Shown: one piece after another, positions 26,710-60,385 of the stretch
Numbering within the stretch: the first letter of the stretch is position 1
Layout of the letters: each line of letters begins with the position of its first letter
Assembly: GCF_003259615.1 (NCBI RefSeq)
Contig: NZ_QLLR01000009.1
Coordinates: 62,001 to 126,000 of the forward strand
Length of the DNA: 64,000 nt
Source: Pedobacter cryoconitis
Lineage (GTDB): Bacteria; Bacteroidota; Bacteroidia; Sphingobacteriales; Sphingobacteriaceae
Reading direction: 5' to 3'
Made by a program: the position numbers and the translations under genes
Notes under the pieces: generated by a model
What the model saw: only the letters and a program-made list of their open reading frames with translations
Databases searched by the model: none
What the model was told of the DNA's origin: nothing

Positions 26710-27864
26710 ATGGCAGAGAAACACATCATACATATGGATCAGGATTCTTTCTTCGTCTCTGTCGAAGTACATAAAGACTCCTCATTAGCTGGTAAACCTG
26801 TCATTATTGGCGGTACTTCTGACCGTGGTGTAGTTGCTTCCTGCAGTTACGAAGCGCGTAAATTTGGGGTCCATTCTGCCATGTCTTCCCGTATGGCCAA
26901 ACTGCTTTGTCCGCATGCTATTTTCATTAAAGGGAACATGGATGCGTATTCCCAGGCTTCACAGGAAATTACTGAAATATTAAGGTCCCGTGTTCCGCTG
27001 ATTGAAAAAGCAAGTATCGATGAGCATTATATAGATATGACTGGCATGGACCGGTTCCATGGAACACTTCAATATGCCCATGAACTGCGTCAAACGGTGA
27101 TCCGGGAAACTGGCCTGCCTATTTCCTTTGGTTTATCAGTCAATAAGACCGTTTCCAAAATGGCAACCAATGAATGTAAACCTAATGGTGAGCTTAATGT
27201 GAAACAAGCTGAAGTACAGCCGTTTCTCAATCCCCTTTCAATTAGAAAAATTCCCGGACTCGGTGAAAAGACCTTTATGAAGCTCAGTGATATGGGGATT
27301 AAAAAGATCTTCACTCTGTCACAGATCCACCCGGATCAGATGATCAGTTTACTCGGTAAAAATGGGCTGTCTTTATTAGAAAAGGCAAAGGGAATTGATC
27401 AGTCTGCGGTTATTCCTTACCAGGAACAAAAAAGTATAGGTACACAATGTACTTTTAAGGCCGATACTATTGATGTGGAAACTATCAATAACCTGATTAC
27501 TTCGATGGTGATGGATCTGGGCTTTGAACTGCGGCAAAAGCAGAAGATTGCCGCTTGTATTACCGTGACCATCCGTTATTCCAACTTTGAGGATGTTACT
27601 AAACAGGCCACAATTTCTTATACTTCAATGGACGCAGTGCTGATCCGCAAAGCGAAAGATTTATTCAAACAACTGTATCAGAAACGGATGCTGATCCGCC
27701 TGGTTGGTGTACGCCTGTCTAACCTGGTGAATGGTTTTGAGCAGATTGATCTGTATGAGAATTCGCAGGAACAATATAATTTATGCCAGGCAATGGATAA
27801 AATCCGTCAGCGCTTCGGCGGGAAAGCGATTACAATGGCTTCTGTACTGGACCTGAAAATTTAA
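26710..27864 (+). CDS. dinB: Y-family DNA polymerase IV
   Basis: 384 residues. Catalytic residues of the Y family are kept: D10 in HMDQDSFFVSVE and D104-E105 in KASIDEHYID, with the YEARKFGV steric-gate region at residues ~48-55 and the helix-hairpin-helix IRKIPGLGEKTFMKL. Because the acidic residues are intact it is an active DinB type rather than the inactive ImuB. The stop is 4 bases before a dnaE-type gene, so the two form an error-prone translesion pair. Confidence 0.93.
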   Translation: MAEKHIIHMDQDSFFVSVEVHKDSSLAGKPVIIGGTSDRGVVASCSYEARKFGVHSAMSSRMAKLLCPHAIFIKGNMDAYSQASQEITEILRSRVPLIEKASIDEHYIDMTGMDRFHGTLQYAHELRQTVIRETGLPISFGLSVNKTVSKMATNECKPNGELNVKQAEVQPFLNPLSIRKIPGLGEKTFMKLSDMGIKKIFTLSQIHPDQMISLLGKNGLSLLEKAKGIDQSAVIPYQEQKSIGTQCTFKADTIDVETINNLITSMVMDLGFELRQKQKIAACITVTIRYSNFEDVTKQATISYTSMDAVLIRKAKDLFKQLYQKRMLIRLVGVRLSNLVNGFEQIDLYENSQEQYNLCQAMDKIRQRFGGKAITMASVLDLKI

Positions 27865-27868
27865 GCTG

Positions 27869-30811
27869 ATGTACCTGAATGTCCACTCCCATTATAGCCT
27901 GCGTTATGGCACAATTGCAATTCCTCAGCTAATCAAAGCCGCCGCTGCCCAGGGAATTACGCAAATGGTATTGACCGATCTGAACAATTCTACCGGGGTT
28001 ATGGAGTTCTGGAGGGCCTGTAATGCGGTTGGAATTAAACCCATTGGCGGATTAGAATTCCGAAGAGATAAAAGATTGCTGTACATCGGCATTGCGAGAA
28101 ATAAAGAAGGTATGAAGGAGTTAAATGATTTCCTGACCTTTCATAACCTGAAGCAGCAGGAGTTGCCGGATCAGCCGCCCGTATTTAAACATTGTTTTAT
28201 TGTTTATCCTTATGTATACGGGAAAATACTCAGAGCAAATGAGTTCATGGGGATTCGTTTCGATGAGCTGCACCAGCTTTATGGAAAAGATATTACAGGT
28301 TTTGCGGCTAAACTTGTTGTTTTACAACCTGTTGTGTTTTTAGATAAAATAGGTTATCGTTTACATGAATATTTGCGAAGTGTTGATCTGAATACCCTTT
28401 TAACTAAAACAAGCATGGCCGATAAATGCAGTCCTTCAGATACTTTCCTTCCTGCGGGAGAACTGGAAACCCGGTTTAGTAAATATCCTTTTATCCTGGA
28501 AAATACGCAGCAGCTGCTGGATAGTTGTGTAATGGATTATGAGCAGGGGAAAATTAAACTGAACCGCAAAACCTTTACTGGCAGTATGGCCAGAGATAAA
28601 GAATTGCTGGAAGAACTGGCAATGAAAGGTTTGATAGCGCGCTATGGGGAAGGCCATGAAAAGGCTTTGGAGAAGGTGAAATATGAGCTTAAAATAATCC
28701 ACGACCTGAATTTCTGCGCTTATTTCCTGATCACCTGGGATATTATTCAGTACTCCATGCGGCAAGGTTATCACCACGTGGGGCGTGGCTCAGGGGCAAA
28801 CAGCACAGTAGCTTACTGCATGAGAATCACTGATGTTGACCCTTTGGAGTTAGACCTTTACTTTGAAAGGTTTCTCAATGCGCAGCGCAGCTCTCCTCCC
28901 GATTTTGATATTGATTATTCGTGGGATGAACGGGAAAATGTACAGCAGTATATTTTTGAAAAATACGGGGCAGCGCATACGGCTTTATTAGGGACGATGT
29001 CTACTTTCAAAGACCGCTCTGTGATCCGGGAAATTGGTAAGGTGATGGGTTTGCCCAAGGCAGAAATTGACAGCTTTACAGACCATACCCAGGATGCGGC
29101 TAACCGGAACAACCCTACTTTTAAGAAGATCCTGGCTGTTGCTGAACTGATGAGCAGCATGCCTAACCAGCGCAGTATCCATGCAGGCGGAGTTTTGATT
29201 TCTGAAGAGCCGATTACTTATTATACCGCGCTGGACCTGCCACCTAAAGGAATGGCTACGGTACAGTGGGATATGTATGAAGCAGAGCTGATTGGTTATG
29301 ATAAATATGATATTTTAAGTCAGCGGGGTATCGGGCATATTAAAGAAGCCGCAAAACTGGTGGAGCAGAACCTTGGCTTGAAGATAGATGTACACCAGGT
29401 TAAAAACTTCATGAAAGACCCGGCGCTGAATGTCAGGCTGCAATCCGGAAATACAATTGGTTGTTTTTATATTGAATCTCCGGCAATGCGCCAGTTACTG
29501 GCTAAGCTCAAATGCAATAATTACCTGACACTGGTTGCTGCGAGTTCTATTATCCGCCCAGGTGTGGCGCAATCGGGGATGATGAAGACCTATATTCAGA
29601 ATTATCATCAGCCTGAAACGGTAAAATACCTGCACCCGGTGATGAAAGAACAGATGCAGGAAACTTATGGGGTGATGGTGTATCAGGAAGATGTAATTAA
29701 AGTTTGTATCCATTATGCGGGTATGAATGGTAGTGACGCTGATATATTGCGCAGAGGAATGAGCGGAAAATACCGTTCCCGTATAGAGTTTGATAAATTA
29801 ATTGATAAGTTTTTTGCGGGTGCCATGGCACTGGGACGAGAAGAAATAACCACTAAGGAAGTATGGCGGCAGGTTTCTTCGTTTGCAGGTTATAGTTTTT
29901 CGAAGGCACATTCTGCAAGTTTTGCGGTAGAAAGTTATCAGAGTTTATTCCTGAAAACTTATTATCCGATAGAGTTCATGGTGGGTGTACTGAATAATTA
30001 CGGTGGTTTTTACCCGCGCTGGGTGTATGTACATGAATTGCGGAAGGCTGGCGCACGTGTACATTTGCCTTGCGTGAATAATAGTACTCCGGTGGTCACT
30101 TTACATGGCATTGATGCTTATCTGGGCTTTATCGGGGTGTTGGGATTGACTTTAAAACTGATGGAACAAATCCCTGAGGAGCGGCATCAAAATGGAGATT
30201 ATCTTGATTTAAGTGATTTTGTAAAACGTACAGCGATTAGCCTGGATCAGGCAATTATCCTGATTCGTACCGGCGCGTTACGTTTCACCGGACGCAGCAA
30301 AAAGGAATTACTCTGGGATGTCCACTCTTTACTCGGCAGCAAAGTTAAAGTGTTGAACCATGCGCAGTTATTTGAAGCGGAAAACAAACATTACCAATTG
30401 CCGGAGTTAGTCAATACCACTTTGGAAGATGCTTATCATGAGCTTGAATTATTGGGTTTTCCGCTTAGTCTTTCCTCTTTTGATTTGCTGCAAACTGCAT
30501 ACCGAGGACATCCCCAGACCAATGAGCTGATCGGTTATGTCGGGCAAATTGTTAAAATGGTTGGCCTTTATGTTTGTGAAAAGACGGTCCATACCAAGAA
30601 CAATAAAAAGATGTGGTTCGGCACTTTCCTGGATGCGGAAGGCAATTTCTTTGATACCACCCATTTTTCAAGCAGTACTCCATCCTACCCGTTCCGTGGC
30701 GCAGGTTGTTACCTGATTTTAGGTAAGGTAGTGGAAGACTTTGGGTATCCGAGTGTGGAAGTTATCAAATTTGCCAAGTTACCGATTGTGGGTAATCCTG
30801 TATTGGAATAA
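27869..30811 (+). CDS. dnaE: DNA polymerase III alpha subunit, short error-prone type
   Basis: 980 residues, shorter than replicative DnaE (~1160). Domains in order: PHP (MYLNVHSHYSLRYGT at the start), palm with GRGSGANSTVAYCMRITDVD and PPDFDIDY at 343-350 (catalytic D345 and D347), IHAGGVLI and SFAGYSFSKAHSASFA segments, a helix-hairpin-helix region, and an OB domain near residues 890-940. Length, operon with dinB and absence of replisome genes point to a DnaE2-type lesion bypass polymerase, not the main replicase. No imuA gene is present. The product probably extends past lesions together with DinB. Confidence 0.93.
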   Translation: MYLNVHSHYSLRYGTIAIPQLIKAAAAQGITQMVLTDLNNSTGVMEFWRACNAVGIKPIGGLEFRRDKRLLYIGIARNKEGMKELNDFLTFHNLKQQELPDQPPVFKHCFIVYPYVYGKILRANEFMGIRFDELHQLYGKDITGFAAKLVVLQPVVFLDKIGYRLHEYLRSVDLNTLLTKTSMADKCSPSDTFLPAGELETRFSKYPFILENTQQLLDSCVMDYEQGKIKLNRKTFTGSMARDKELLEELAMKGLIARYGEGHEKALEKVKYELKIIHDLNFCAYFLITWDIIQYSMRQGYHHVGRGSGANSTVAYCMRITDVDPLELDLYFERFLNAQRSSPPDFDIDYSWDERENVQQYIFEKYGAAHTALLGTMSTFKDRSVIREIGKVMGLPKAEIDSFTDHTQDAANRNNPTFKKILAVAELMSSMPNQRSIHAGGVLISEEPITYYTALDLPPKGMATVQWDMYEAELIGYDKYDILSQRGIGHIKEAAKLVEQNLGLKIDVHQVKNFMKDPALNVRLQSGNTIGCFYIESPAMRQLLAKLKCNNYLTLVAASSIIRPGVAQSGMMKTYIQNYHQPETVKYLHPVMKEQMQETYGVMVYQEDVIKVCIHYAGMNGSDADILRRGMSGKYRSRIEFDKLIDKFFAGAMALGREEITTKEVWRQVSSFAGYSFSKAHSASFAVESYQSLFLKTYYPIEFMVGVLNNYGGFYPRWVYVHELRKAGARVHLPCVNNSTPVVTLHGIDAYLGFIGVLGLTLKLMEQIPEERHQNGDYLDLSDFVKRTAISLDQAIILIRTGALRFTGRSKKELLWDVHSLLGSKVKVLNHAQLFEAENKHYQLPELVNTTLEDAYHELELLGFPLSLSSFDLLQTAYRGHPQTNELIGYVGQIVKMVGLYVCEKTVHTKNNKKMWFGTFLDAEGNFFDTTHFSSSTPSYPFRGAGCYLILGKVVEDFGYPSVEVIKFAKLPIVGNPVLE

Positions 30812-52894: not shown

Positions 52895-53785
52895 TCAGAC
52901 AAGCATTTCCAATAAATAAGGTAACGCAGGATTATCATTGGTCTTTTTCCATACCGCATACAATTCTGTTTGTTGTGGTATGTTTTTCAATTCAATAAAT
53001 TTCACCCCCGGATTCCCGGAAGTAGCCAGCGAGGTCGGAATGATAGATAGTCCCATCCCGTTCTCCACGAGTTTGAATATGGTTGGCGCATGAATAGAGC
53101 GATGTGATAACTTGGGTGTAAAACCCTGATCAGCACATAAATTAATGATCTGCTGATAATAAAGCTGGCTCTGGTCATTGGGGAAAAGAATAAAATATTC
53201 ATCTTTTAATTCGCCTATATGCTTGAAAACTGAGGCAGACATCGGATGATCTGCCGGCAATACCAGCGTAAAAGTTTCTTTATAAACACTTTTGATCATC
53301 ATATCTTGTCCCACCTGATTAGAACGCATAAACCCAAGGTCAATATCCCCCTTTTCCAGTGCCAGCAGCTGTTCTTTATTGGTGAGCTCTTCTAAATGGA
53401 ATTCAATATTCGGACAATCGCTGTTGAACTGTTTCAGCAAAACGGGCAATATAGACTGCATTGCCGAGGCTACAAAACTAATTCCAAGCTGCCCGGTATT
53501 CCCTTTTTGAAGAAGTTGTACATTATTAACGGCTATTTGCATTTTCTGGATGACCTGAACGGCATCTTTATAAAAGAGTTTTCCGGCTTCGTTTAAAACT
53601 ACACGTTTATTGTTGCGGTCAAACAAAGAATGCCCAAGGTATTGTTCCAGCTGTTTAATCTGCTGGCTCAAAGCCGACTGAGATATAAATAGCTTCTCAG
53701 CTGCCTTCCGGTAATGCAGTTCTTCGGCCAGTAATTTAAAATAATTTAAATGTCTTAGCTCTATTTGATTAGTGATACTTATCAT
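52895..53785 (-). CDS. LysR family regulator of the lysine operon
   Basis: 296 residues. N-terminal winged HTH (FKLLAEELHYRKAAEKLFIS QSALSQQIKQLEQ split over the helix) and a LysR_substrate periplasmic-binding fold (GQLGISFVASAMQSILPVLL). Divergent from the saccharopine dehydrogenase gene with 75 bases between, the classical arrangement for a LysR controlling its neighbour. Probably senses a lysine pathway intermediate. Confidence 0.92.
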   Translation of the reverse strand: MISITNQIELRHLNYFKLLAEELHYRKAAEKLFISQSALSQQIKQLEQYLGHSLFDRNNKRVVLNEAGKLFYKDAVQVIQKMQIAVNNVQLLQKGNTGQLGISFVASAMQSILPVLLKQFNSDCPNIEFHLEELTNKEQLLALEKGDIDLGFMRSNQVGQDMMIKSVYKETFTLVLPADHPMSASVFKHIGELKDEYFILFPNDQSQLYYQQIINLCADQGFTPKLSHRSIHAPTIFKLVENGMGLSIIPTSLATSGNPGVKFIELKNIPQQTELYAVWKKTNDNPALPYLLEMLV

Positions 53786-53791
53786 AGTTTA

Positions 53792-53810
53792 AGTAATCAG
53801 AATTATTACT
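53792..53810. promoter_or_regulatory. LysR-type operator in the divergent intergenic region
   Basis: Dyad AGTAAT-CAGAATT-ATTACT (arms 53792-53797 and 53805-53810) centred between the lysR start and the operon start. Size and AT-rich arms fit the LysR box family. Confidence 0.5.
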
Positions 53811-53860
53811 AATGGTAAAACTAATGATATTTGAGATTGTAAACCAAAATAAACTTTATA

Positions 53861-54922
53861 ATGATCAATAAAATTTTAAGCCTGGGCCTTGGCAAGGTAG
53901 GTACGCTGGTAGCCACATTACTAAGCGACCAGTTCGAAGTTACCGGAATGGACAAACAAGCTCCGCACTATGATTACGAGCTTCCATTTAGTATTGCTAC
54001 CGGCGATGTAGCCGATTTGGTTTTAATGGAAAAGATGATTGGTGAGTTTGATGCGGTAGTTTCTGCCCTGCCATTTTTCTTAAATAGCCCGCTTGCAAGA
54101 ATCGCACACAAACTGGGAAAACATTATTTTGATTTAACTGAGGATGTTCCTACCACCAATGAAATCAGAAAACTAAGTGAAACTGCTACTGCCGTAATGG
54201 CTCCTCAATGTGGCCTTGCTCCTGGTTTAATCGGTATTATAGGCGCTCACCTGGGAAATGATTTTGATAAATTAAGATCAATTGATATGCGGGTTGGTGC
54301 TTTACCAAAATATCCGAATGGTGCAATGGGTTATGCCTTTAACTGGTCTGCGGCAGGCGTAGTCAACGAATATATCAATGACGCTGAGGCTATTCATCAT
54401 GGCCAGCGGAAAATGGTCCCTTCTTTACAGGGCAAAGAAACTATCCAGATTAATGGTGGTTTATATGAAGCTTTTTATACCTCCGGCGGTTTGGGCACGA
54501 TGTGTGAAACTTATGATGGTAAACTGGACAGACTGGATTATAAAACCATTCGTTATCCGGGACATTGCGACCTGATGAATTTCCTGATCAATGAGTTACA
54601 TATGAAGGAAGATAAACAACAGTTAGAAGATATTCTTAAAAATGCCAAACCTCCGGTCGACGAAGATGTTGTTATTATCTACGCAGATGCTGAAGGATGG
54701 AAAAATAACGAATTGAAACGCAATGAATTCTGTAAATCTTATGGTCCGATTGAGTTGAACGGTAATTCCTGGAGAGCAATATCCTGGACTACAGCGGCAA
54801 GTATTGTAGCAGTTGTGGAAATGGTTGCCAATGGTTCGCTACCATCAAAAGGCTTTATCAAGCAGGAAGAAATCTCGTTTGAAGCGCTTTTAAACACAAA
54901 ATGTGGAAGTCTCTTTAAATAA
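53861..54922 (+). CDS. Saccharopine dehydrogenase / lysine 6-dehydrogenase family
   Basis: 353 residues. Rossmann start KILSLGLGKVGTLVATLLSD with a GxGxxG loop, then the Sacchrp_dh C-terminal domain (APQCGLAPGLIGIIGAHLGN). The family holds glutamate-forming saccharopine dehydrogenase and lysine 6-dehydrogenase, both yielding 2-aminoadipate 6-semialdehyde. Length and position before an ALDH7 gene fit either. First gene of the operon, spacing 5 bases to the DUF1338 gene. Confidence 0.87.
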   Translation: MINKILSLGLGKVGTLVATLLSDQFEVTGMDKQAPHYDYELPFSIATGDVADLVLMEKMIGEFDAVVSALPFFLNSPLARIAHKLGKHYFDLTEDVPTTNEIRKLSETATAVMAPQCGLAPGLIGIIGAHLGNDFDKLRSIDMRVGALPKYPNGAMGYAFNWSAAGVVNEYINDAEAIHHGQRKMVPSLQGKETIQINGGLYEAFYTSGGLGTMCETYDGKLDRLDYKTIRYPGHCDLMNFLINELHMKEDKQQLEDILKNAKPPVDEDVVIIYADAEGWKNNELKRNEFCKSYGPIELNGNSWRAISWTTAASIVAVVEMVANGSLPSKGFIKQEEISFEALLNTKCGSLFK

Positions 54923-54927
54923 TAATT

Positions 54928-55833
54928 ATGAATTTTAATACGAACAGTCCATTGGATATTTTCCTGACTGAACTTTTTGACCGGTATCGTGAAGCTGTAC
55001 CAGAAGTCAATCAAATTACAGCCGCTTTACTTAAAAATGGCGTAGTAGGTTCTCAGGATGAAATTGTAAATGATCATATTGCTTTCAGAACATTGGGTGT
55101 TCCGAACCTGGGTATCAAATCATTTGAGAAGATCTTTCTGTTTCACGGTTATCAAAAGAGAGATCATTATTATTTTGAAGAGAAAAAGCTGGATGCGTAT
55201 TGGTACGCCCCTCCTGCTCCGGAATATCCGCGTATTTTTTTAAGTGAGCTCAAAGTAGATCAGCTGAGTCAAAACACGCAGGAAATTATCAAAAAATATA
55301 CGGGAGATATTAAATCAGATCCTGTTGATGCGCTGAATCTGAACGATGGGGAGGCTATTGCTGAATTTTTACATCATCCGCTGTGGAAATTACCAGACCT
55401 GAAAGATTATACCGCACTACTGGAAGAAAGTGAATATGCTGCCTGGGTAATTTACAATCGGTATTATCTGAATCATTATACGATCAGTGTTCATGCGCTG
55501 CCTGCTGGTTATCAGTCTCTTCCTGATTTTAATAAATTTGTGGAAAGCCTGGGTATTAAATTAAATGATGCAGGCGGAAAAATTAAAACAAGCGCGGACG
55601 GCTTATTGAGCCAAAGCAGTACGGTTGCCTGCCTGCATGAAGTGGGATTTGCTGATGGCGCTCAAACAAAAATTGCAGGCAGTTATGTAGAGTTTGCAGA
55701 GCGTTCAGTTTTACCGGCTTATAGTCACCTTAAACCTGAAGAGATTCAGCCAGTACACCGAAGAGAAGGTTTTGAAACCAGCAATGCTGACAAGATTTTC
55801 GAAAGCACTTACACCGGACAAGTAAAGTCCTGA
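54928..55833 (+). CDS. 2-oxoadipate dioxygenase/decarboxylase (DUF1338, HglS-like)
   Basis: 301 residues. DUF1338 landmarks: [10 protein letters not shown] (H50 and R54, same 4-residue spacing as the metal histidine and substrate arginine of HglS), [10 protein letters not shown] (H183, second ligand) and GSYVEFAER (E255 as likely third ligand). HglS turns 2-oxoadipate into D-2-hydroxyglutarate with CO2 release, an iron-dependent reaction. Followed by the ALDH gene, and two genes on by a D-2-hydroxyglutarate dehydrogenase, which supports the role. Confidence 0.85.
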
Positions 55834-55861
55834 AATTATTAAAAGATATATTATTAAAGAT

Positions 55862-57391
55862 ATGGACATCAAAAAAGTATTAAGCCAATTAGGAATTACT
55901 GAAAATAATAGTGGAACTTCTACCGGGCATCAATGGATGGAATCGGGCGCAAAAGTTATCACTTCTTCATCGCCTGTAGATGGCAAAGAAATAGCAAAAG
56001 TAAGCACAACAAGTCCTGAAGATTATGAAAAAGTAATTAGTACGAGTGCTGAAGCATTTTTATTCTGGCGTAATGTGCCTGCACCAAAAAGAGGTGAAAT
56101 AGTGAGACAACTGGGTGAAGCACTTCGTTTGAATAAAGAAAATCTGGGTATCCTGGTTTCTTATGAAATGGGAAAAAGCTTACAGGAAGGTCTTGGGGAA
56201 GTTCAGGAAATGATAGATATATGCGATTTTGCTGTTGGACTTTCCAGACAACTGTATGGTTTGACGATGCACTCTGAAAGACCAGATCACAGAATGTACG
56301 AGCAGTGGCATGCACTGGGTATTGTTGGGGTAATTTCTGCATTCAACTTCCCTGTAGCTGTCTGGAGCTGGAACACTGCATTAGCCTTGGTTTGCGGAAA
56401 CGTTTGTGTTTGGAAACCTTCTTCTAAAACCCCGCTTTGCGCGGTAGCCTGTCAGCATATCATTGCTTCAGTTTTAAAAGCGAATGATATGCCTGAAGGA
56501 ATCAGCTCACTAATCACCGGAAATCCTGTTGGAGACCTGATCAATAATGATCCAAGAATTCCATTAGTTTCTTTTACAGGGTCAACAAGAGTAGGCCGTT
56601 TGGTTTCAGCTGCAGTAGCAGGCCGTTTCGGAAGAACGATTCTTGAACTGGGCGGGAACAACGCGATCATTGTTTCTAAAGATGCAGATCTGGATATAGC
56701 GATTATCGGCGCTGCATTCGGTGCGGTAGGAACTGCAGGACAAAGATGTACTTCAACCAGGCGTTTAATTATTCATGAAGAGATTTATGAAGAGTTTAAA
56801 AACAAATTGGTCAAAGCTTACGGACAACTTCGCATTGGTGATCCATTAGATCAGAACAATCACGTGGGGCCGCTGATTGATAAAGCTGCTGTGGAAGTTT
56901 ATTTAGAGGCTATAGAAAAAGGTAAAGCTCAGGGGGCTAACTTTATTGCAGAAGGTGGTGTGCTTGCAGGCGGGCCATACGGTTCGGGCTGTTATGTAAA
57001 ACCATGTATTGCTGAAGTGAAAAATCATTATCAAATTGTACAGGAAGAAACTTTTGCACCTATCCTGTATATTATGAGTTATAAAACCTTAACAGAAGCT
57101 ATCGCGCTTCAAAACGGTGTTCCGCAAGGGCTTTCTTCTGCAATTATGACTTTAAACCTCAGAGAAGCAGAACTGTTCCTTTCTACCAATGGATCTGATT
57201 GTGGTATCGCAAATGTGAATATCGGTACTTCTGGTGCTGAAATTGGCGGTGCTTTCGGTGGGGAAAAAGAAACAGGCGGTGGAAGAGAAAGTGGATCTGA
57301 TGCTTGGAAAGGATATATGCGCAGACAAACAAACACGATCAATTATGCGAATAAATTGCCACTGGCACAGGGTATTAAATTCGATCTTTAA
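55862..57391 (+). CDS. ALDH7-type L-aminoadipate-semialdehyde dehydrogenase
   Basis: 509 residues. Catalytic cysteine C296 in [13 protein letters not shown] and general base E262 in [10 protein letters not shown]; both neighbours (TSTRRL after the cysteine, NNAI after the glutamate) are the marks of the ALDH7A1/antiquitin group, which oxidises 2-aminoadipate 6-semialdehyde to 2-aminoadipate. NAD-site FTGSTRVGR is present. Lies 28 bases after the DUF1338 gene and 6 before the FAD dehydrogenase gene. Confidence 0.92.
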
Positions 57392-57397
57392 TTAGCT

Positions 57398-60385
57398 ATG
57401 AATAGCAGCAATGATAAACTGAAATCCCTGTCCGATTCTTTGGACGGGGATTTTTTTACAGATAATCAGACCCGTATTCTCTACGCTACAGATGCTTCAG
57501 CTTATCGGGAAATGCCGTTGGCTGTTGCCATCCCCCGCTCTGTTGCAGACCTTGAAAAGCTGATCCTGTTTGCAGCAAAAGAAGGAATATCGCTGATTCC
57601 CCGGACTGCTGGTACTTCTCTTGCCGGACAGGTTGTAGGCCATGGTATTGTTGTTGATGTCTCTAAATATTTTAACAAGATCCTGGAACTTAATGTAGAG
57701 GAAAGATGGATTAAAGTGCAGCCCGGCGTAGTGCGTGATGAGCTTAACCTTTATCTTAAACCTTTTGGCCTGTATTTCGGCCCCGAAACCTCGACTGCTA
57801 ACAGAGCGATGATCGGCGGAATGGTGGGCAATAATTCCTGTGGCTCAAACAGCCTGATCTATGGGAGTACCCGGGAGCATACGCTTGAAATCAAAGCCTT
57901 ATTGTCTGACGGTTCTGCTGCTGATTTTAAAGCGCTTGAATTTGATGAGTTCATTAAAAAATGTGAGGGGAATTCCTTAGAAAATGAGCTTTACAGAAAT
58001 ATCAGGGCTTTACTCAGTAATTATGAAAATCAGCTCAGTATACGCCAGGAATTTCCGGCTAAGAGCATCCATAGACGAAATACCGGGTATGCGGTTGATA
58101 TTTTGCTCGACACCTCTCCTTTTACGGCAGAAACAGCGGACTTCAATTTCTGTAAACTCATTGCCGGCTCTGAAGGTACACTCGCATTCATTACAGAGAT
58201 AAAACTTAACCTGGAACCCATCTTAAAAGAGGAAACGGCCTTATTGTGCATACATTTTAATAGCATTGATGATGCCTTGATGGCCAATCTGATTGCCTTA
58301 AAATATGAGCCAAGAGTAAGTGAATTGATAGATCATTTGATTCTTGAATGTACCAAAGAAAATATAGAGCAGTCAAAAAACCGCTTCTTTGTTTCGGGTG
58401 ATCCTGCTGCTATTCTTGTGGTAGAGTATTCAGGTAAGGACAAAGAGGAAATTACAGCCAAGGCAACAAGCGTTGAGGCAGAAATGAGAGCGAATGGATT
58501 GGGTTATCATTTTCCTTTAGTATTTGGCCCGGATATGTCCAGGATCTGGTCTTTAAGAAAAGCTGGTTTAGGTTTATTAAGTAATCTTCCCGGGGATGAA
58601 AAGGCGGTAGCGGTAATTGAAGATACTGCTGTTGATGTCAAAGATTTGCCTGCATATATTCGTGATTTTAATGAAATCCTTAAAAAGCATGGGCTGTTTT
58701 CTGTCCACTATGCACATGCTGGTTCAGGAGAAATACATTTGCGGCCTATATTGAATCTGAAAACAGTGGAAGGCAACCGTTTATTCAGAGTAATTGCGGA
58801 GGAAATAGCTAAGCTTGTTAAACAATATAATGGCTCGTTAAGTGGTGAACATGGAGACGGGAGGTTACGTGGTGAGTTTATTGAGCAAATGATTGGACCG
58901 CGTAATTATAAAATGATCAGAGAGATTAAATCTGTATGGGACCCGAAAAACATTTTTAATCCCGGAAAAATTACCGATACTCCTGCGATGGATACCATGT
59001 TACGGTATGAACCAGGCCAGCGGGCCCCTGAAATCAAGACGGTATTCCGTTATCAGGGCCAGAATATTTTGCAGCACGCTGAACAATGCAATGGTTCTGG
59101 TGATTGCCGGAAGTCGCATTTGGCTGGCGGAACTATGTGTCCGTCTTTTATGGCGACCAGGAATGAGAAAGATACGACAAGAGCCAGGGCTAATATGCTG
59201 CGCGAAATGCTCACGCATTCTACTAAAATCAATCGCTTCGATCATCAGGAGCTGAAGGACGTAATGGATTTGTGTTTGAGTTGCAAAGGTTGTAAGTCAG
59301 AATGTCCTTCCAATGTAGATATGGCCAAACTAAAAGCTGAATTTCTGCAAGGATATTATGATGCTAATGGAGTTCCCTTGAAAACCTGGATTGTTGCCGG
59401 CTTTAATCAGATTAACCAGATGGCTTCTTTATCGCCACGTTTATACAATTGGAGTATTGGCAATAAAACCACGAATGCCCTGATCAAAAAAACTTGTGGT
59501 TTTGCCCGGGAGCGCTCTCTCCCGCTTTTGTATAAAACAACTTTAAAAAAGTGGTTTATTGAACACAGGCTGCTTGCTGAAACAGTGCCCGGTAAAGGTA
59601 TAAGTGCAGGCGAAGTTACCGGCGCGGACATGGGCAAGGCCGTGGATGCAAAACAGAAGATTGTTTATTTTTTCTGTGATGAGTTCACCAATTATTTAGA
59701 TACTGAAATTGGTATTAAGGCCGTTCTTTTATTAGAGAAATTAGGCTACCAGGTAATTATCCCTCAACATCTGGAGAGCGGAAGAACCTGGATTTCAAAG
59801 GGCCTGCTCCGTAAAGCCAAAAAGATTGCGCAGCATAATGTATTCCGGCTTAGTAAAATTATTACAGAAGAAACACCATTAATTGGTATAGAACCTTCTG
59901 CGATATTGACATTCAGGGATGAATACATTGACCTGGTAGATTTGCCACAACTGGAAATAGCACAGCAATTAGCTAAAAACAGCCTGTTAATAGATGAGTT
60001 CATTGCCAGAGAAATGGAGAACGGAAATATATCCCAGTCCAGCTTCAGTAAGGAAAGCAGGTTGATCCAATTACATGGACATTGTCAGCAGAAAGCCTGG
60101 GCTGCAATGGGTGCCTCCAAACAAATACTCGCTTTCCCGGAAAACTATAAGGTAGAAATTATTCCTTCTGGTTGCTGTGGCATGGCCGGATCATTTGGTT
60201 ATGAGAAAAATCATTATGAATTATCTATGCAGATTGGGGAATTAGTACTTTTTCCAGAAGTTAGGAAACAAGCCGCGGACGTGATTATTGCTGCAACCGG
60301 AACAAGTTGCCGTCATCAGATCAAAGATGGTACAACCAAAAAGGCTTTACACCCTGTAGAAGTATTATATGAGGCTTTAGTTTAA
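57398..60385 (+). CDS. D-2-hydroxyglutarate dehydrogenase, YdiJ-type FAD/Fe-S protein
   Basis: 995 residues. FAD_binding_4 (PCMH) domain in the first ~210 residues (IPRTAGTSLAGQVVGHGIVV, NNSCGSNSLIYGSTREH), FAD-oxidase C-terminal domain (YAHAGSGEIHLRPIL), then the CNGSGDCRKSHLAGGTMCP segment, a 4Fe-4S site C626-x2-C629-x2-C632-x3-C636 followed by proline, and CCG repeats (HGHCQQKAW, PSGCCGMAGSFGYEK). This layout is that of E. coli YdiJ, which oxidises D-2-hydroxyglutarate to 2-oxoglutarate. It completes the pathway begun by the DUF1338 enzyme. Confidence 0.9.
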   Translation: MNSSNDKLKSLSDSLDGDFFTDNQTRILYATDASAYREMPLAVAIPRSVADLEKLILFAAKEGISLIPRTAGTSLAGQVVGHGIVVDVSKYFNKILELNVEERWIKVQPGVVRDELNLYLKPFGLYFGPETSTANRAMIGGMVGNNSCGSNSLIYGSTREHTLEIKALLSDGSAADFKALEFDEFIKKCEGNSLENELYRNIRALLSNYENQLSIRQEFPAKSIHRRNTGYAVDILLDTSPFTAETADFNFCKLIAGSEGTLAFITEIKLNLEPILKEETALLCIHFNSIDDALMANLIALKYEPRVSELIDHLILECTKENIEQSKNRFFVSGDPAAILVVEYSGKDKEEITAKATSVEAEMRANGLGYHFPLVFGPDMSRIWSLRKAGLGLLSNLPGDEKAVAVIEDTAVDVKDLPAYIRDFNEILKKHGLFSVHYAHAGSGEIHLRPILNLKTVEGNRLFRVIAEEIAKLVKQYNGSLSGEHGDGRLRGEFIEQMIGPRNYKMIREIKSVWDPKNIFNPGKITDTPAMDTMLRYEPGQRAPEIKTVFRYQGQNILQHAEQCNGSGDCRKSHLAGGTMCPSFMATRNEKDTTRARANMLREMLTHSTKINRFDHQELKDVMDLCLSCKGCKSECPSNVDMAKLKAEFLQGYYDANGVPLKTWIVAGFNQINQMASLSPRLYNWSIGNKTTNALIKKTCGFARERSLPLLYKTTLKKWFIEHRLLAETVPGKGISAGEVTGADMGKAVDAKQKIVYFFCDEFTNYLDTEIGIKAVLLLEKLGYQVIIPQHLESGRTWISKGLLRKAKKIAQHNVFRLSKIITEETPLIGIEPSAILTFRDEYIDLVDLPQLEIAQQLAKNSLLIDEFIAREMENGNISQSSFSKESRLIQLHGHCQQKAWAAMGASKQILAFPENYKVEIIPSGCCGMAGSFGYEKNHYELSMQIGELVLFPEVRKQAADVIIAATGTSCRHQIKDGTTKKALHPVEVLYEALV

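What the first reader, a model, noticed from the sequence alone, without database searches (positions are those of the whole stretch)
53861..60385. Lysine-to-2-oxoglutarate operon built on an HglS-type enzyme
Four contiguous genes read as saccharopine/lysine dehydrogenase family, DUF1338 (HglS-like), ALDH7 and a YdiJ-type D-2-hydroxyglutarate dehydrogenase. Known chemistry of these families (named, not tested here) links lysine, 2-aminoadipate semialdehyde, 2-aminoadipate, 2-oxoadipate, D-2-hydroxyglutarate and 2-oxoglutarate. The HglS branch is mainly known from Pseudomonas lysine catabolism and plants. Only the 2-aminoadipate aminotransferase is missing from the operon. Joining a saccharopine- or lysine-6-dehydrogenase entry with the HglS exit under one LysR is a less-described arrangement.
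Basis: partly seen in the sequence, partly recalled or inferred. Interest (0 to 1): 0.72.

Follow-up and report, generated by a model that had tools for sequence, protein, structure and literature searches.

The report
Lysine-burning operon with plant-type enzyme
Four neighbouring genes in this bacterium look like most of an enzyme line for turning the amino acid lysine into central metabolism, including a relative of an unusual iron enzyme of plants; the enzymes are of known kinds, but this bacterial operon and its modular spread seem little described.

Summary
Window 53861-60385 carries four tightly spaced co-directional genes behind a divergent LysR gene: a saccharopine/lysine dehydrogenase-fold protein, DUF1338/HglS, ALDH7 and an FAD/Fe-S protein of YdiJ architecture. 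Refinements: (1) the first is most likely an L-lysine 6-dehydrogenase: nearest solved structure by sequence and fold is P. horikoshii LysDH, it has LysDH size, and no lysine-ketoglutarate reductase was found in the genome. (2) HglS is of the rice FLO7 type (124 of 250 aligned residues identical, four active-site residues kept); the solved P. putida HglS was not matched. (3) ALDH7 passes the piperideine-6-carboxylate dehydrogenase cut-off. (4) The YdiJ-like protein is 30% identical to E. coli YdiJ but below that family's cut-off. The arrangement is not unique: the five-gene cassette recurs in 15 of 24 fetched congeneric HglS loci, and gene 1 lies near HglS in 36 of 80 related loci. HglS looks like an exit module fed by exchangeable entries; in six congeners it follows genes suggesting glycosyl-hydroxylysine breakdown, which three paper searches did not show in print. 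No activity was tested; the aminotransferase is unassigned. New variant of a known kind.

The parts
52895..53785 (-). LysR-type regulator, 296 aa, divergent; likely controls the operon (inferred from synteny)
   Evidence: PF03466 and PF00126 over cut-off; of the 25 NCBIfam rows shown (57 matched) none reaches its cut-off; present at 67-98% identity in the 15 congeneric cassettes and at 70-75% in 3 family loci, one of which (L039) lacks gene 1
53786..53860 (.). divergent LysR/operon intergenic region
   Evidence: majority consensus CTAATGgtAAA..TA..GATATTTGag upstream of gene 1 in an alignment of 19 loci, window included, 12 of them outside the window's own syntenic group; some rows depart from it; binding not tested
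53861..54922 (+). saccharopine/lysine dehydrogenase-fold protein, 353 aa; read as L-lysine 6-dehydrogenase (lysine to 2-aminoadipate 6-semialdehyde/piperideine-6-carboxylate)
   Evidence: Pfam; best PDB sequence 3abi LysDH 83.5 bits against 27.5 for saccharopine reductase; model pLDDT 91.6, best fold 3abi Z 39.3
54928..55833 (+). HglS / 2-oxoadipate dioxygenase-decarboxylase, FLO7 type, 301 aa; H50, R54, H183, E255 match the HHE triad and the substrate arginine
   Evidence: PF07063; rice FLO7 6w1k 211 bits, 124 of 250 aligned residues identical and the four residues kept
55862..57391 (+). ALDH7 / L-piperideine-6-carboxylate (2-aminoadipate semialdehyde) dehydrogenase, 509 aa
   Evidence: NF050084 817 bits over cut-off 730; antiquitin and alpha-aminoadipic semialdehyde dehydrogenase entries among the best 16 PDB sequences
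57398..60385 (+). FAD-linked oxidase + 4Fe-4S + CCG-motif protein, 995 aa, YdiJ architecture; read as D-2-hydroxyglutarate dehydrogenase
   Evidence: 30% identity over 1040 columns with E. coli YdiJ; below NF049975 cut-off; a homologue lies within four ORFs of HglS in 24 of 32 family loci and 16 of 24 genus loci

Best explanation
The operon encodes an aerobic route from L-lysine to 2-oxoglutarate. Gene 1 oxidatively deaminates the epsilon-amino group of lysine (NAD-linked lysine 6-dehydrogenase), giving 2-aminoadipate semialdehyde, which cyclises to piperideine-6-carboxylate. Gene 3 (ALDH7) oxidises it to 2-aminoadipate. An aminotransferase encoded elsewhere makes 2-oxoadipate. Gene 2 (FLO7-type HglS, Fe(II) and O2) converts 2-oxoadipate to D-2-hydroxyglutarate and CO2. 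Gene 4 (YdiJ-like flavo-iron-sulfur enzyme) oxidises D-2-hydroxyglutarate to 2-oxoglutarate. The divergent LysR protein regulates it. Shown here: gene order, family membership of genes 1-3, active-site residues of HglS, predicted fold of gene 1, and recurrence of the cassette. Inferred: every reaction, the cofactor, the regulation, the missing aminotransferase.
For: Domains and equivalogs. Gene 1: LysDH 3abi is the best solved relative by sequence (83.5 against 27.5 bits for saccharopine reductase; profile 112.4 against 45.7 human and 38.3 fungal) and by fold (Foldseek 1.9e-26, next entry 2.5e-21; Z 39.3, next 34.0); 353 aa is near 3abi (349) and below the listed saccharopine enzymes (435-449); the only AlaDh_PNT_N protein found in the genome looks like alanine dehydrogenase, so no LKR partner. 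HglS: H50, R54, H183, E255 align with FLO7; HglS, FLO7, AT1G07040 and YdcJ were shown to act on 2-oxoadipate and the authors predict it for family members with this triad and arginine (PMC7286885). Gene pairing: in the family sample the 8 genomes with gene 1 (E below 1e-40) all have HglS, against 25 of the other 143 (Fisher p 2.5e-6, phylogeny not corrected). Cassette recurrence. Three of those 8 (G020, G037, G055) lack L-lysine 6-transaminase over its cut-off, so gene 1 could be their lysine entry.
Against: No activity, expression or growth data. The YdiJ-like protein misses the curated cut-off. No same-strand aminotransferase lies within 8 kb in 112 related loci, by BLAST with this genome's aminotransferases. 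The second-best sequence match of gene 1 is 3ic5, an N-terminal domain that its depositors named putative saccharopine dehydrogenase (61.5 bits). Gene-1 relatives also occur without HglS nearby: 44 of 80 named loci, several on cut contigs. The genome already holds a family-wide L-lysine 6-transaminase and a second ALDH7, so the operon is partly redundant. An acyl-CoA dehydrogenase nearest to plant ACX4 and then glutaryl-CoA dehydrogenases leaves a glutaryl-CoA exit open. In the family sample HglS is not associated with LAT (27 of 33 against 101 of 118, p 0.59) nor clearly with ALDH7 (29 of 33 against 87 of 118, p 0.11), and G002 (HglS in two pieces, one with a stop), G027 and G111 have HglS with neither LAT nor gene 1.
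Confidence: 0.75

Rival explanations
1. Saccharopine route: gene 1 is saccharopine dehydrogenase (glutamate-forming) working with a lysine-ketoglutarate reductase elsewhere; the rest as in the best explanation.
For: Pfam names the C-terminal domain Sacchrp_dh_C; after 3abi the next sequence matches are 3ic5, named putative saccharopine dehydrogenase by its depositors, and human and fungal saccharopine enzymes; the T-x-R-Y segment is shared with saccharopine reductase.
Against: Weaker sequence and fold scores than LysDH; some 80-95 residues shorter than the listed saccharopine enzymes; the single AlaDh_PNT_N protein found in the genome is alanine dehydrogenase-like.
Confidence: 0.11
2. The operon serves mainly 2-aminoadipate or 2-oxoadipate that arises by other routes (lysine via the separate LAT and ALDH7, hydroxylysine, pipecolate), and gene 1 is an amine dehydrogenase for a related substrate.
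For: LAT and another ALDH7 exist in the genome; many relatives keep HglS-YdiJ without gene 1 (16 of 32 family loci); six congeners put HglS behind a kinase/class-III aminotransferase fusion gene.
Against: Gene 1 is paired with HglS and is closest to lysine dehydrogenase; residues Y227, T229, R231 keep the spacing of Y238, T240, R242, assigned to substrate binding in a model of Geobacillus LysDH (the Geobacillus sequence itself was not aligned).
Confidence: 0.1
3. Gene 1 makes a carboxyspermidine-like product (polyamine metabolism), with the operon misread.
For: Carboxyspermidine dehydrogenases and the related entries 4ina and 4rl6 share the fold (Z 31-34).
Against: Lower than LysDH in sequence (4ina 27.9 against 112.4 bits) and fold; no polyamine genes among the operon's families; partners are 2-aminoadipate and 2-oxoadipate enzymes.
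Confidence: 0.02

Closest known systems
Pseudomonas putida D-lysine catabolism with HglS (PMC7286885)
   Same: 2-oxoadipate to D-2-hydroxyglutarate by a DUF1338 Fe(II) enzyme, and on to 2-oxoglutarate
   Different: HglS here matches FLO7 and not the solved P. putida enzyme in the PDB searches and at 301 aa is too short for its Val402/Ser403 loop; entry by lysine 6-dehydrogenase; one operon with LysR
Plant lysine catabolism (LKR/SDH, ALDH7, FLO7/AT1G07040, D-2-hydroxyglutarate dehydrogenase)
   Same: FLO7-type HglS at 50% identity and ALDH7; same order of intermediates (plant pathway partly from PMC7286885, partly recalled)
   Different: lysine dehydrogenase instead of the bifunctional LKR/SDH; an operon; YdiJ architecture instead of the plant/human D2HGDH architecture (recalled)
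L-lysine 6-dehydrogenase of Pyrococcus horikoshii (3abi)
   Same: fold, size and sequence family of gene 1
   Different: 24% identity; no activity shown here
Bacterial LAT-Pcd pathway (L-lysine 6-transaminase plus piperideine-6-carboxylate dehydrogenase; recalled)
   Same: same product, 2-aminoadipate; LAT is over its cut-off in this genome and in 128 of 151 family genomes
   Different: transaminase entry; not linked to HglS here
E. coli YdiJ
   Same: same domain order, 30% identity over the whole length
   Different: below the NF049975 cut-off

Membership tests
HglS / DUF1338 (PF07063) | family profile over its curated cut-off | tested here: met
   215.7 bits, cut-off 25
HglS / DUF1338 (PF07063) | His-His-Glu metal triad and the 2-oxoadipate-binding arginine | tested here: met
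   H50, R54, H183, E255 align with the same residues of FLO7; roles from PMC7286885
HglS / DUF1338 (PF07063) | 2-oxoadipate to D-2-hydroxyglutarate with Fe(II) and O2 | not testable with these tools
   needs purified enzyme
L-lysine 6-dehydrogenase | closest to LysDH in sequence and fold, LysDH size | tested here: met
L-lysine 6-dehydrogenase | NAD-dependent deamination of lysine | not testable with these tools
   Asp31 at the end of the second strand is invariant in 25 aligned sequences, which by a recalled rule favours NAD; activity untested
Saccharopine dehydrogenase (glutamate-forming) | partner lysine-ketoglutarate reductase (AlaDh_PNT domain) in the genome | tested here: not met
   one AlaDh_PNT_N protein, alanine dehydrogenase best at 322.8 bits against its cut-off 391.85
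Saccharopine dehydrogenase (glutamate-forming) | best fold match to saccharopine enzymes | tested here: inconclusive
   same superfamily, Z 28-32, but LysDH stands at 39.3
L-piperideine-6-carboxylate dehydrogenase (ALDH7, NF050084) | equivalog cut-off | tested here: met
   817.2 over 730
D-2-hydroxyglutarate dehydrogenase YdiJ (NF049975) | equivalog cut-off | tested here: not met
   647.5 below 1350; 'works like YdiJ' rests on architecture and context only
D-2-hydroxyglutarate dehydrogenase YdiJ (NF049975) | FAD domain, 4Fe-4S dicluster and CCG segment in the order of E. coli YdiJ | tested here: met
Pseudomonas D-lysine pathway | D-lysine entry genes (racemase, D-lysine aminotransferase, pipecolate branch; recalled) | not tested
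   none among the operon's families; the genome was not searched for them

The most novel reading that the evidence does not exclude
In Bacteroidota, FLO7-type HglS, in this family usually with the YdiJ-like dehydrogenase nearby, is a transferable exit module for 2-oxoadipate onto which different entries are clipped: lysine dehydrogenase (this window), lysine transaminase (unlinked), and, in six congeners, an undescribed pathway that takes up glucosyl-galactosyl-hydroxylysine (collagen's sugar-bearing lysine), strips glucose with a GH63/YgjK-type enzyme and galactose with a GH2 enzyme, and turns hydroxylysine into 2-aminoadipate semialdehyde with a fused kinase-phospholyase. Plant lysine catabolism would then be the organelle version of a module that is common in these bacteria.
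Probability: 0.37. Interest if true: 0.72.

Novelty: new variant of a known kind. Interest (0 to 1): 0.5.

Why it matters
The bacterial enzymes tested in PMC7286885 are P. putida HglS, about 15% identical to rice FLO7, and E. coli YdcJ. A bacterial operon with a FLO7-type HglS at 50% identity puts the plant-type enzyme into bacteria, where its role, partners and regulation can be tested by gene removal. It also suggests an annotation rule to test: a 'saccharopine dehydrogenase' next to a DUF1338 gene in Bacteroidota is probably a lysine dehydrogenase.

Tried and rejected
Rejected: that the operon is unique to this genome. A family sample had no HglS in the 19 other congeners drawn, but the fuller genus search found it in 25 of 145, own genome included. 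Rejected: foreign base composition; operon GC (0.40-0.42) is that of the window's ORFs (mean 0.404). Rejected: a linked aminotransferase; BLAST (E 1e-20) of this genome's aminotransferases, taken from 32 loci, against ORFs of 112 related loci gave 8 hits, one on the same strand as the cluster and that 8.1 kb away (the 24 genus loci were not in this test). Among 20 of the genome's 42 aminotransferase-family matches scanned by NCBIfam none lists the 2-aminoadipate transaminase model NF049976, so that step stays unassigned. Led nowhere: a first alignment of the LysR intergenic region spoiled by one locus, redone; E. coli YdcJ gave no significant pairwise match to the window HglS (E 0.6; 21% in a forced multiple alignment). 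ALDH7 tree: the 33 operon-labelled rows do not form one group (3 changes); 19 of them group with this genome's own second copy, 2 with the 10 family-wide solitary copies, and 12 lie elsewhere, among them the full-cassette locus L287, so operon ALDH7 genes do not share one history. Only one (L220) of six acyl-CoA dehydrogenase matches was compared with the PDB. Not done: whether the six hydroxylysine-type genomes hold ALDH7 and YdiJ elsewhere; a phylogeny of FLO7-type HglS with plants; identification of the host by name. One structure model, two fold comparisons.
Full report
Observation. Pfam and NCBIfam confirm a saccharopine-dehydrogenase-fold protein, DUF1338/HGLS, an ALDH7 over the piperideine-6-carboxylate dehydrogenase cut-off, and an FAD plus 4Fe-4S protein. 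The one soft name is YdiJ: the NF049975 match is 647.5 bits against a cut-off of 1350, although the protein aligns end to end with E. coli YdiJ at 30% identity.

Gene 1. Saccharopine-type Pfam domains do not settle the substrate. By single-sequence search the best solved relative is 3abi, 83.5 bits; then 3ic5, an N-terminal domain named putative saccharopine dehydrogenase by its depositors, 61.5; then saccharopine reductase, 27.5. With a five-sequence profile the values are 112.4 (3abi), 75.5 (3ic5), 45.7 (human saccharopine domain) and 38.3 (fungal). 3abi is listed as PH1688 in the sequence file, but its fold-library title calls it L-lysine dehydrogenase, as does PMC10413350 (passages). An AlphaFold2 model on 25 aligned sequences (pLDDT 91.6) matches 3abi first: Foldseek 1.9e-26, TM 0.83; VIA Z 39.3 over 337 residues at 2.2 A, next carboxyspermidine dehydrogenase 34.0 and saccharopine reductase 32.0. 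The protein has LysDH length. The segment Y227-K-T-x-R-Y-P-G-H235 is invariant in the five sequences of A2 except position 230; T229 and P233 are nearly invariant among 25. Its Y, T and R keep the spacing of Y238, T240 and R242, which a model of Geobacillus LysDH assigns to binding the amino-acid end of lysine (PMC6697735, passages; no alignment to that sequence was made). T, R and Y also occur in saccharopine reductase, while P-G-H is shared with 3abi and not with saccharopine reductase (alignments). The genome has one AlaDh_PNT_N protein, nearest to alanine dehydrogenase, hence no candidate LKR. I read gene 1 as lysine 6-dehydrogenase, about 0.85.

Gene 2. The best solved relative is rice FLO7 (6w1k, 211 bits), then 3lho (125 bits); with a profile 283 and 251 bits, then 3iuz at 43.5. 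PMC7286885 gives 6W1K as FLO7 and 6W1G and 6W1H as P. putida HglS; the latter two were not matched at E 0.001. Over 250 aligned residues 124 are identical to FLO7, and H50, R54, H183 and E255 pair with H, R, H, E of FLO7. PMC7286885 (first part of the text, sections 7 and 8 in full, and passages) shows that HglS, FLO7, AT1G07040 and YdcJ make 2-hydroxyglutarate from 2-oxoadipate, that the triad binds the metal, and that the arginine sets specificity (its FLO7 Arg64 is residue 63 in my chain count). E. coli YdcJ gives no significant pairwise match to the window protein (E 0.6). So the window has the plant-type enzyme.

Distribution. HglS: 33 of 151 genomes of a family sample, 25 of 145 of the genus, 23 of 395 of a phylum sample with the profile A1, own genome in each. 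LAT over cut-off: 128 of 151. ALDH7 over cut-off: 116 of 151. Gene 1: 9 of 151 at E 1e-3, of which I dropped one (G073, E 1e-4, residues 8-111 only); of the 8 left, 4 including the own genome are at 59-100% identity and 4 at 36%. These 8 all have HglS.

Layouts around HglS, own genome not counted, genes within four ORFs. Family sample, 32 loci: HglS-YdiJ 16, HglS alone 5, HglS-ALDH7-YdiJ 3, LysR-SDH-HglS-ALDH7-YdiJ 2, HglS-SDH-ALDH7 2, YdiJ-HglS-SDH-ALDH7 2, SDH-HglS-ALDH7 1, LysR-HglS-ALDH7-YdiJ 1. Genus, 24 loci: full cassette 15, HglS alone 6, HglS-ALDH7 1, LysR-HglS-ALDH7-YdiJ 1, SDH-HglS-ALDH7 1 (contigs that end early are counted as they stand). YdiJ is the immediate neighbour of HglS in 18 of 32 family loci and in none of 24 genus loci, where ALDH7 stands between them. 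One further genus hit (G262, a fragment) was not fetched. Loci with HglS carry titles such as Flavobacteriaceae, Saprospiraceae, Cryomorphaceae and Chitinophagaceae; the loci titled Nitrospina, Proteobacteria, Acidobacteria and the like have none. YdiJ (35% or more) and LysR (40% or more) were each seen in only 3 of these 80, so they are features of this family's version.

Cassette behaviour. In 6 of the 15 congeneric full cassettes the flanks (GDSL and MlaE genes) are those of the window, at 84-100% identity; in the other 9 neither flank gene was found beside the cassette. This fits a cassette moved or rearranged as a unit; composition is not foreign. The upstream region keeps a majority consensus in 19 aligned loci. 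In an ALDH7 tree 19 operon copies and this genome's second copy form one starred group, 10 family-wide solitary copies group with two other operon copies, and 12 operon copies lie elsewhere.

Redundancy and the missing step. The genome also holds LAT (TIGR03251, 620.4 bits over 520.8) and a second ALDH7, on two other contigs. Three of the 8 gene-1 genomes lack LAT over cut-off (G020, G037, G055), which fits gene 1 as an alternative entry, but the numbers are small. In genus g16 of the family sample all 13 HglS genomes have LAT and ALDH7 over cut-off, against 2 of 5 without HglS (p 0.012; phylogeny not corrected; this genus was picked after looking). Over the whole family the association with LAT vanishes (p 0.59) and that with ALDH7 is not significant (p 0.11). 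The aminotransferase for 2-aminoadipate is not linked and not identified. An acyl-CoA dehydrogenase (L220) is nearest to plant ACX4 (392 bits), with a Thermus-type entry named putative glutaryl-CoA dehydrogenase (2eba, 299) and human glutaryl-CoA dehydrogenase (1siq, 260) next (the human and Thermus origin is recalled), so a second exit cannot be excluded.

An unexpected neighbour. In six congeneric genomes a second HglS type (60-61% to the window's) directly follows, in the same order, a GH2 beta-galactosidase, a GH63-like glucosidase and an APH kinase fused to a class-III aminotransferase. Pfam was run on the set of L274 and the other loci were matched by BLAST to L276, at 62-97% for these three genes. 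In L276 the aminotransferase half is nearest to human ethanolamine-phosphate phospho-lyase (6tor, 474 bits), recalled to be the paralogue of hydroxylysine phospho-lyase; the glucosidase is nearest to entries of E. coli YgjK (about 290 bits), recalled to have been crystallised with a glucosyl-1,2-galactose. Upstream in the one stretch annotated (L300, genome G157) are two SusC/SusD-type pairs, an ECF sigma/FecR pair, a TPR protein and a fucosidase-family gene; the fucosidase is not explained by my reading. Glc-alpha-1,2-Gal on hydroxylysine is the collagen decoration (PMC8626586, passages). The reading I favour is breakdown of glucosyl-galactosyl-hydroxylysine to 2-aminoadipate semialdehyde with HglS as the exit; ALDH7 and YdiJ are not next to these genes, and whether these genomes hold them elsewhere was not searched, save that one of the six (G270) also has the full lysine cassette (L288). 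A phosphoethanolamine substrate is the obvious rival. Paper searches on hydroxylysine kinase and phospholyase in bacteria, glucosylgalactosyl hydroxylysine and YgjK with collagen or hydroxylysine listed no such pathway among the rows shown, in the open-licence library only.

Literature. Searches on HglS, DUF1338, lysine 6-dehydrogenase and Bacteroidota showed PMC7286885 as the one paper on the HglS reaction among the rows listed; no row describes a Bacteroidota LysDH-HglS operon, again in that library and by titles and abstracts' starts. A term search finds no 'Bacteroidetes' and no 'operon' in the main text of PMC7286885.

Verdict. The additions are the choice of LysDH, the plant-type HglS, the wide recurrence, and the modular view of HglS. 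The chemistry is known; the combination is a new variant.

Noticed in passing
L276:7446-15764 (-), and L271, L274, L277, L281, L283: In six congeners HglS follows GH2, GH63/YgjK-like and APH-aminotransferase III genes; upstream of this set in L300 lie SusC/SusD-type pairs. Possible glucosyl-galactosyl-hydroxylysine (collagen) catabolic locus.
   Followed up: partly
L062:5032-12216 and L060, L061, L063: A second, distant set: HglS (34-36%), dehydrogenase (32-35%), ALDH7 and, by Pfam in L062, an AsnC/Lrp-type regulator in place of LysR, with a divergent YdiJ gene in L062 and L063.
   Followed up: partly
window 54928-55833: This bacterial HglS is 50% identical to rice FLO7 over 250 residues, far above the about 15% quoted between rice and P. 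putida enzymes; bears on the origin of the plant gene.
   Followed up: no
L213:7948-9486 (-), own genome contig C40: The genome's second ALDH7 groups with 19 operon copies, not with the family-wide solitary copies.
   Followed up: no
L212:6805-8136 (+) and L220:703-2064 (-), own genome contig C36: LAT and an ACX4/glutaryl-CoA dehydrogenase-like gene lie about 11 kb apart on one contig; possible second lysine exit.
   Followed up: partly
L036:10756-13886 (-); L280:4713-6176 (-): Other dehydrogenase-HglS-ALDH7 clusters stand behind peptidase genes (M14, M19) or an amino acid permease gene, fitting a peptide or amino acid source.
   Followed up: no
window 26710-30811 (+): A 980-aa protein that looks like a DnaE-type polymerase (by eye, recalled motif) with a 384-aa gene upstream, perhaps an error-prone polymerase cassette.
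   Followed up: no
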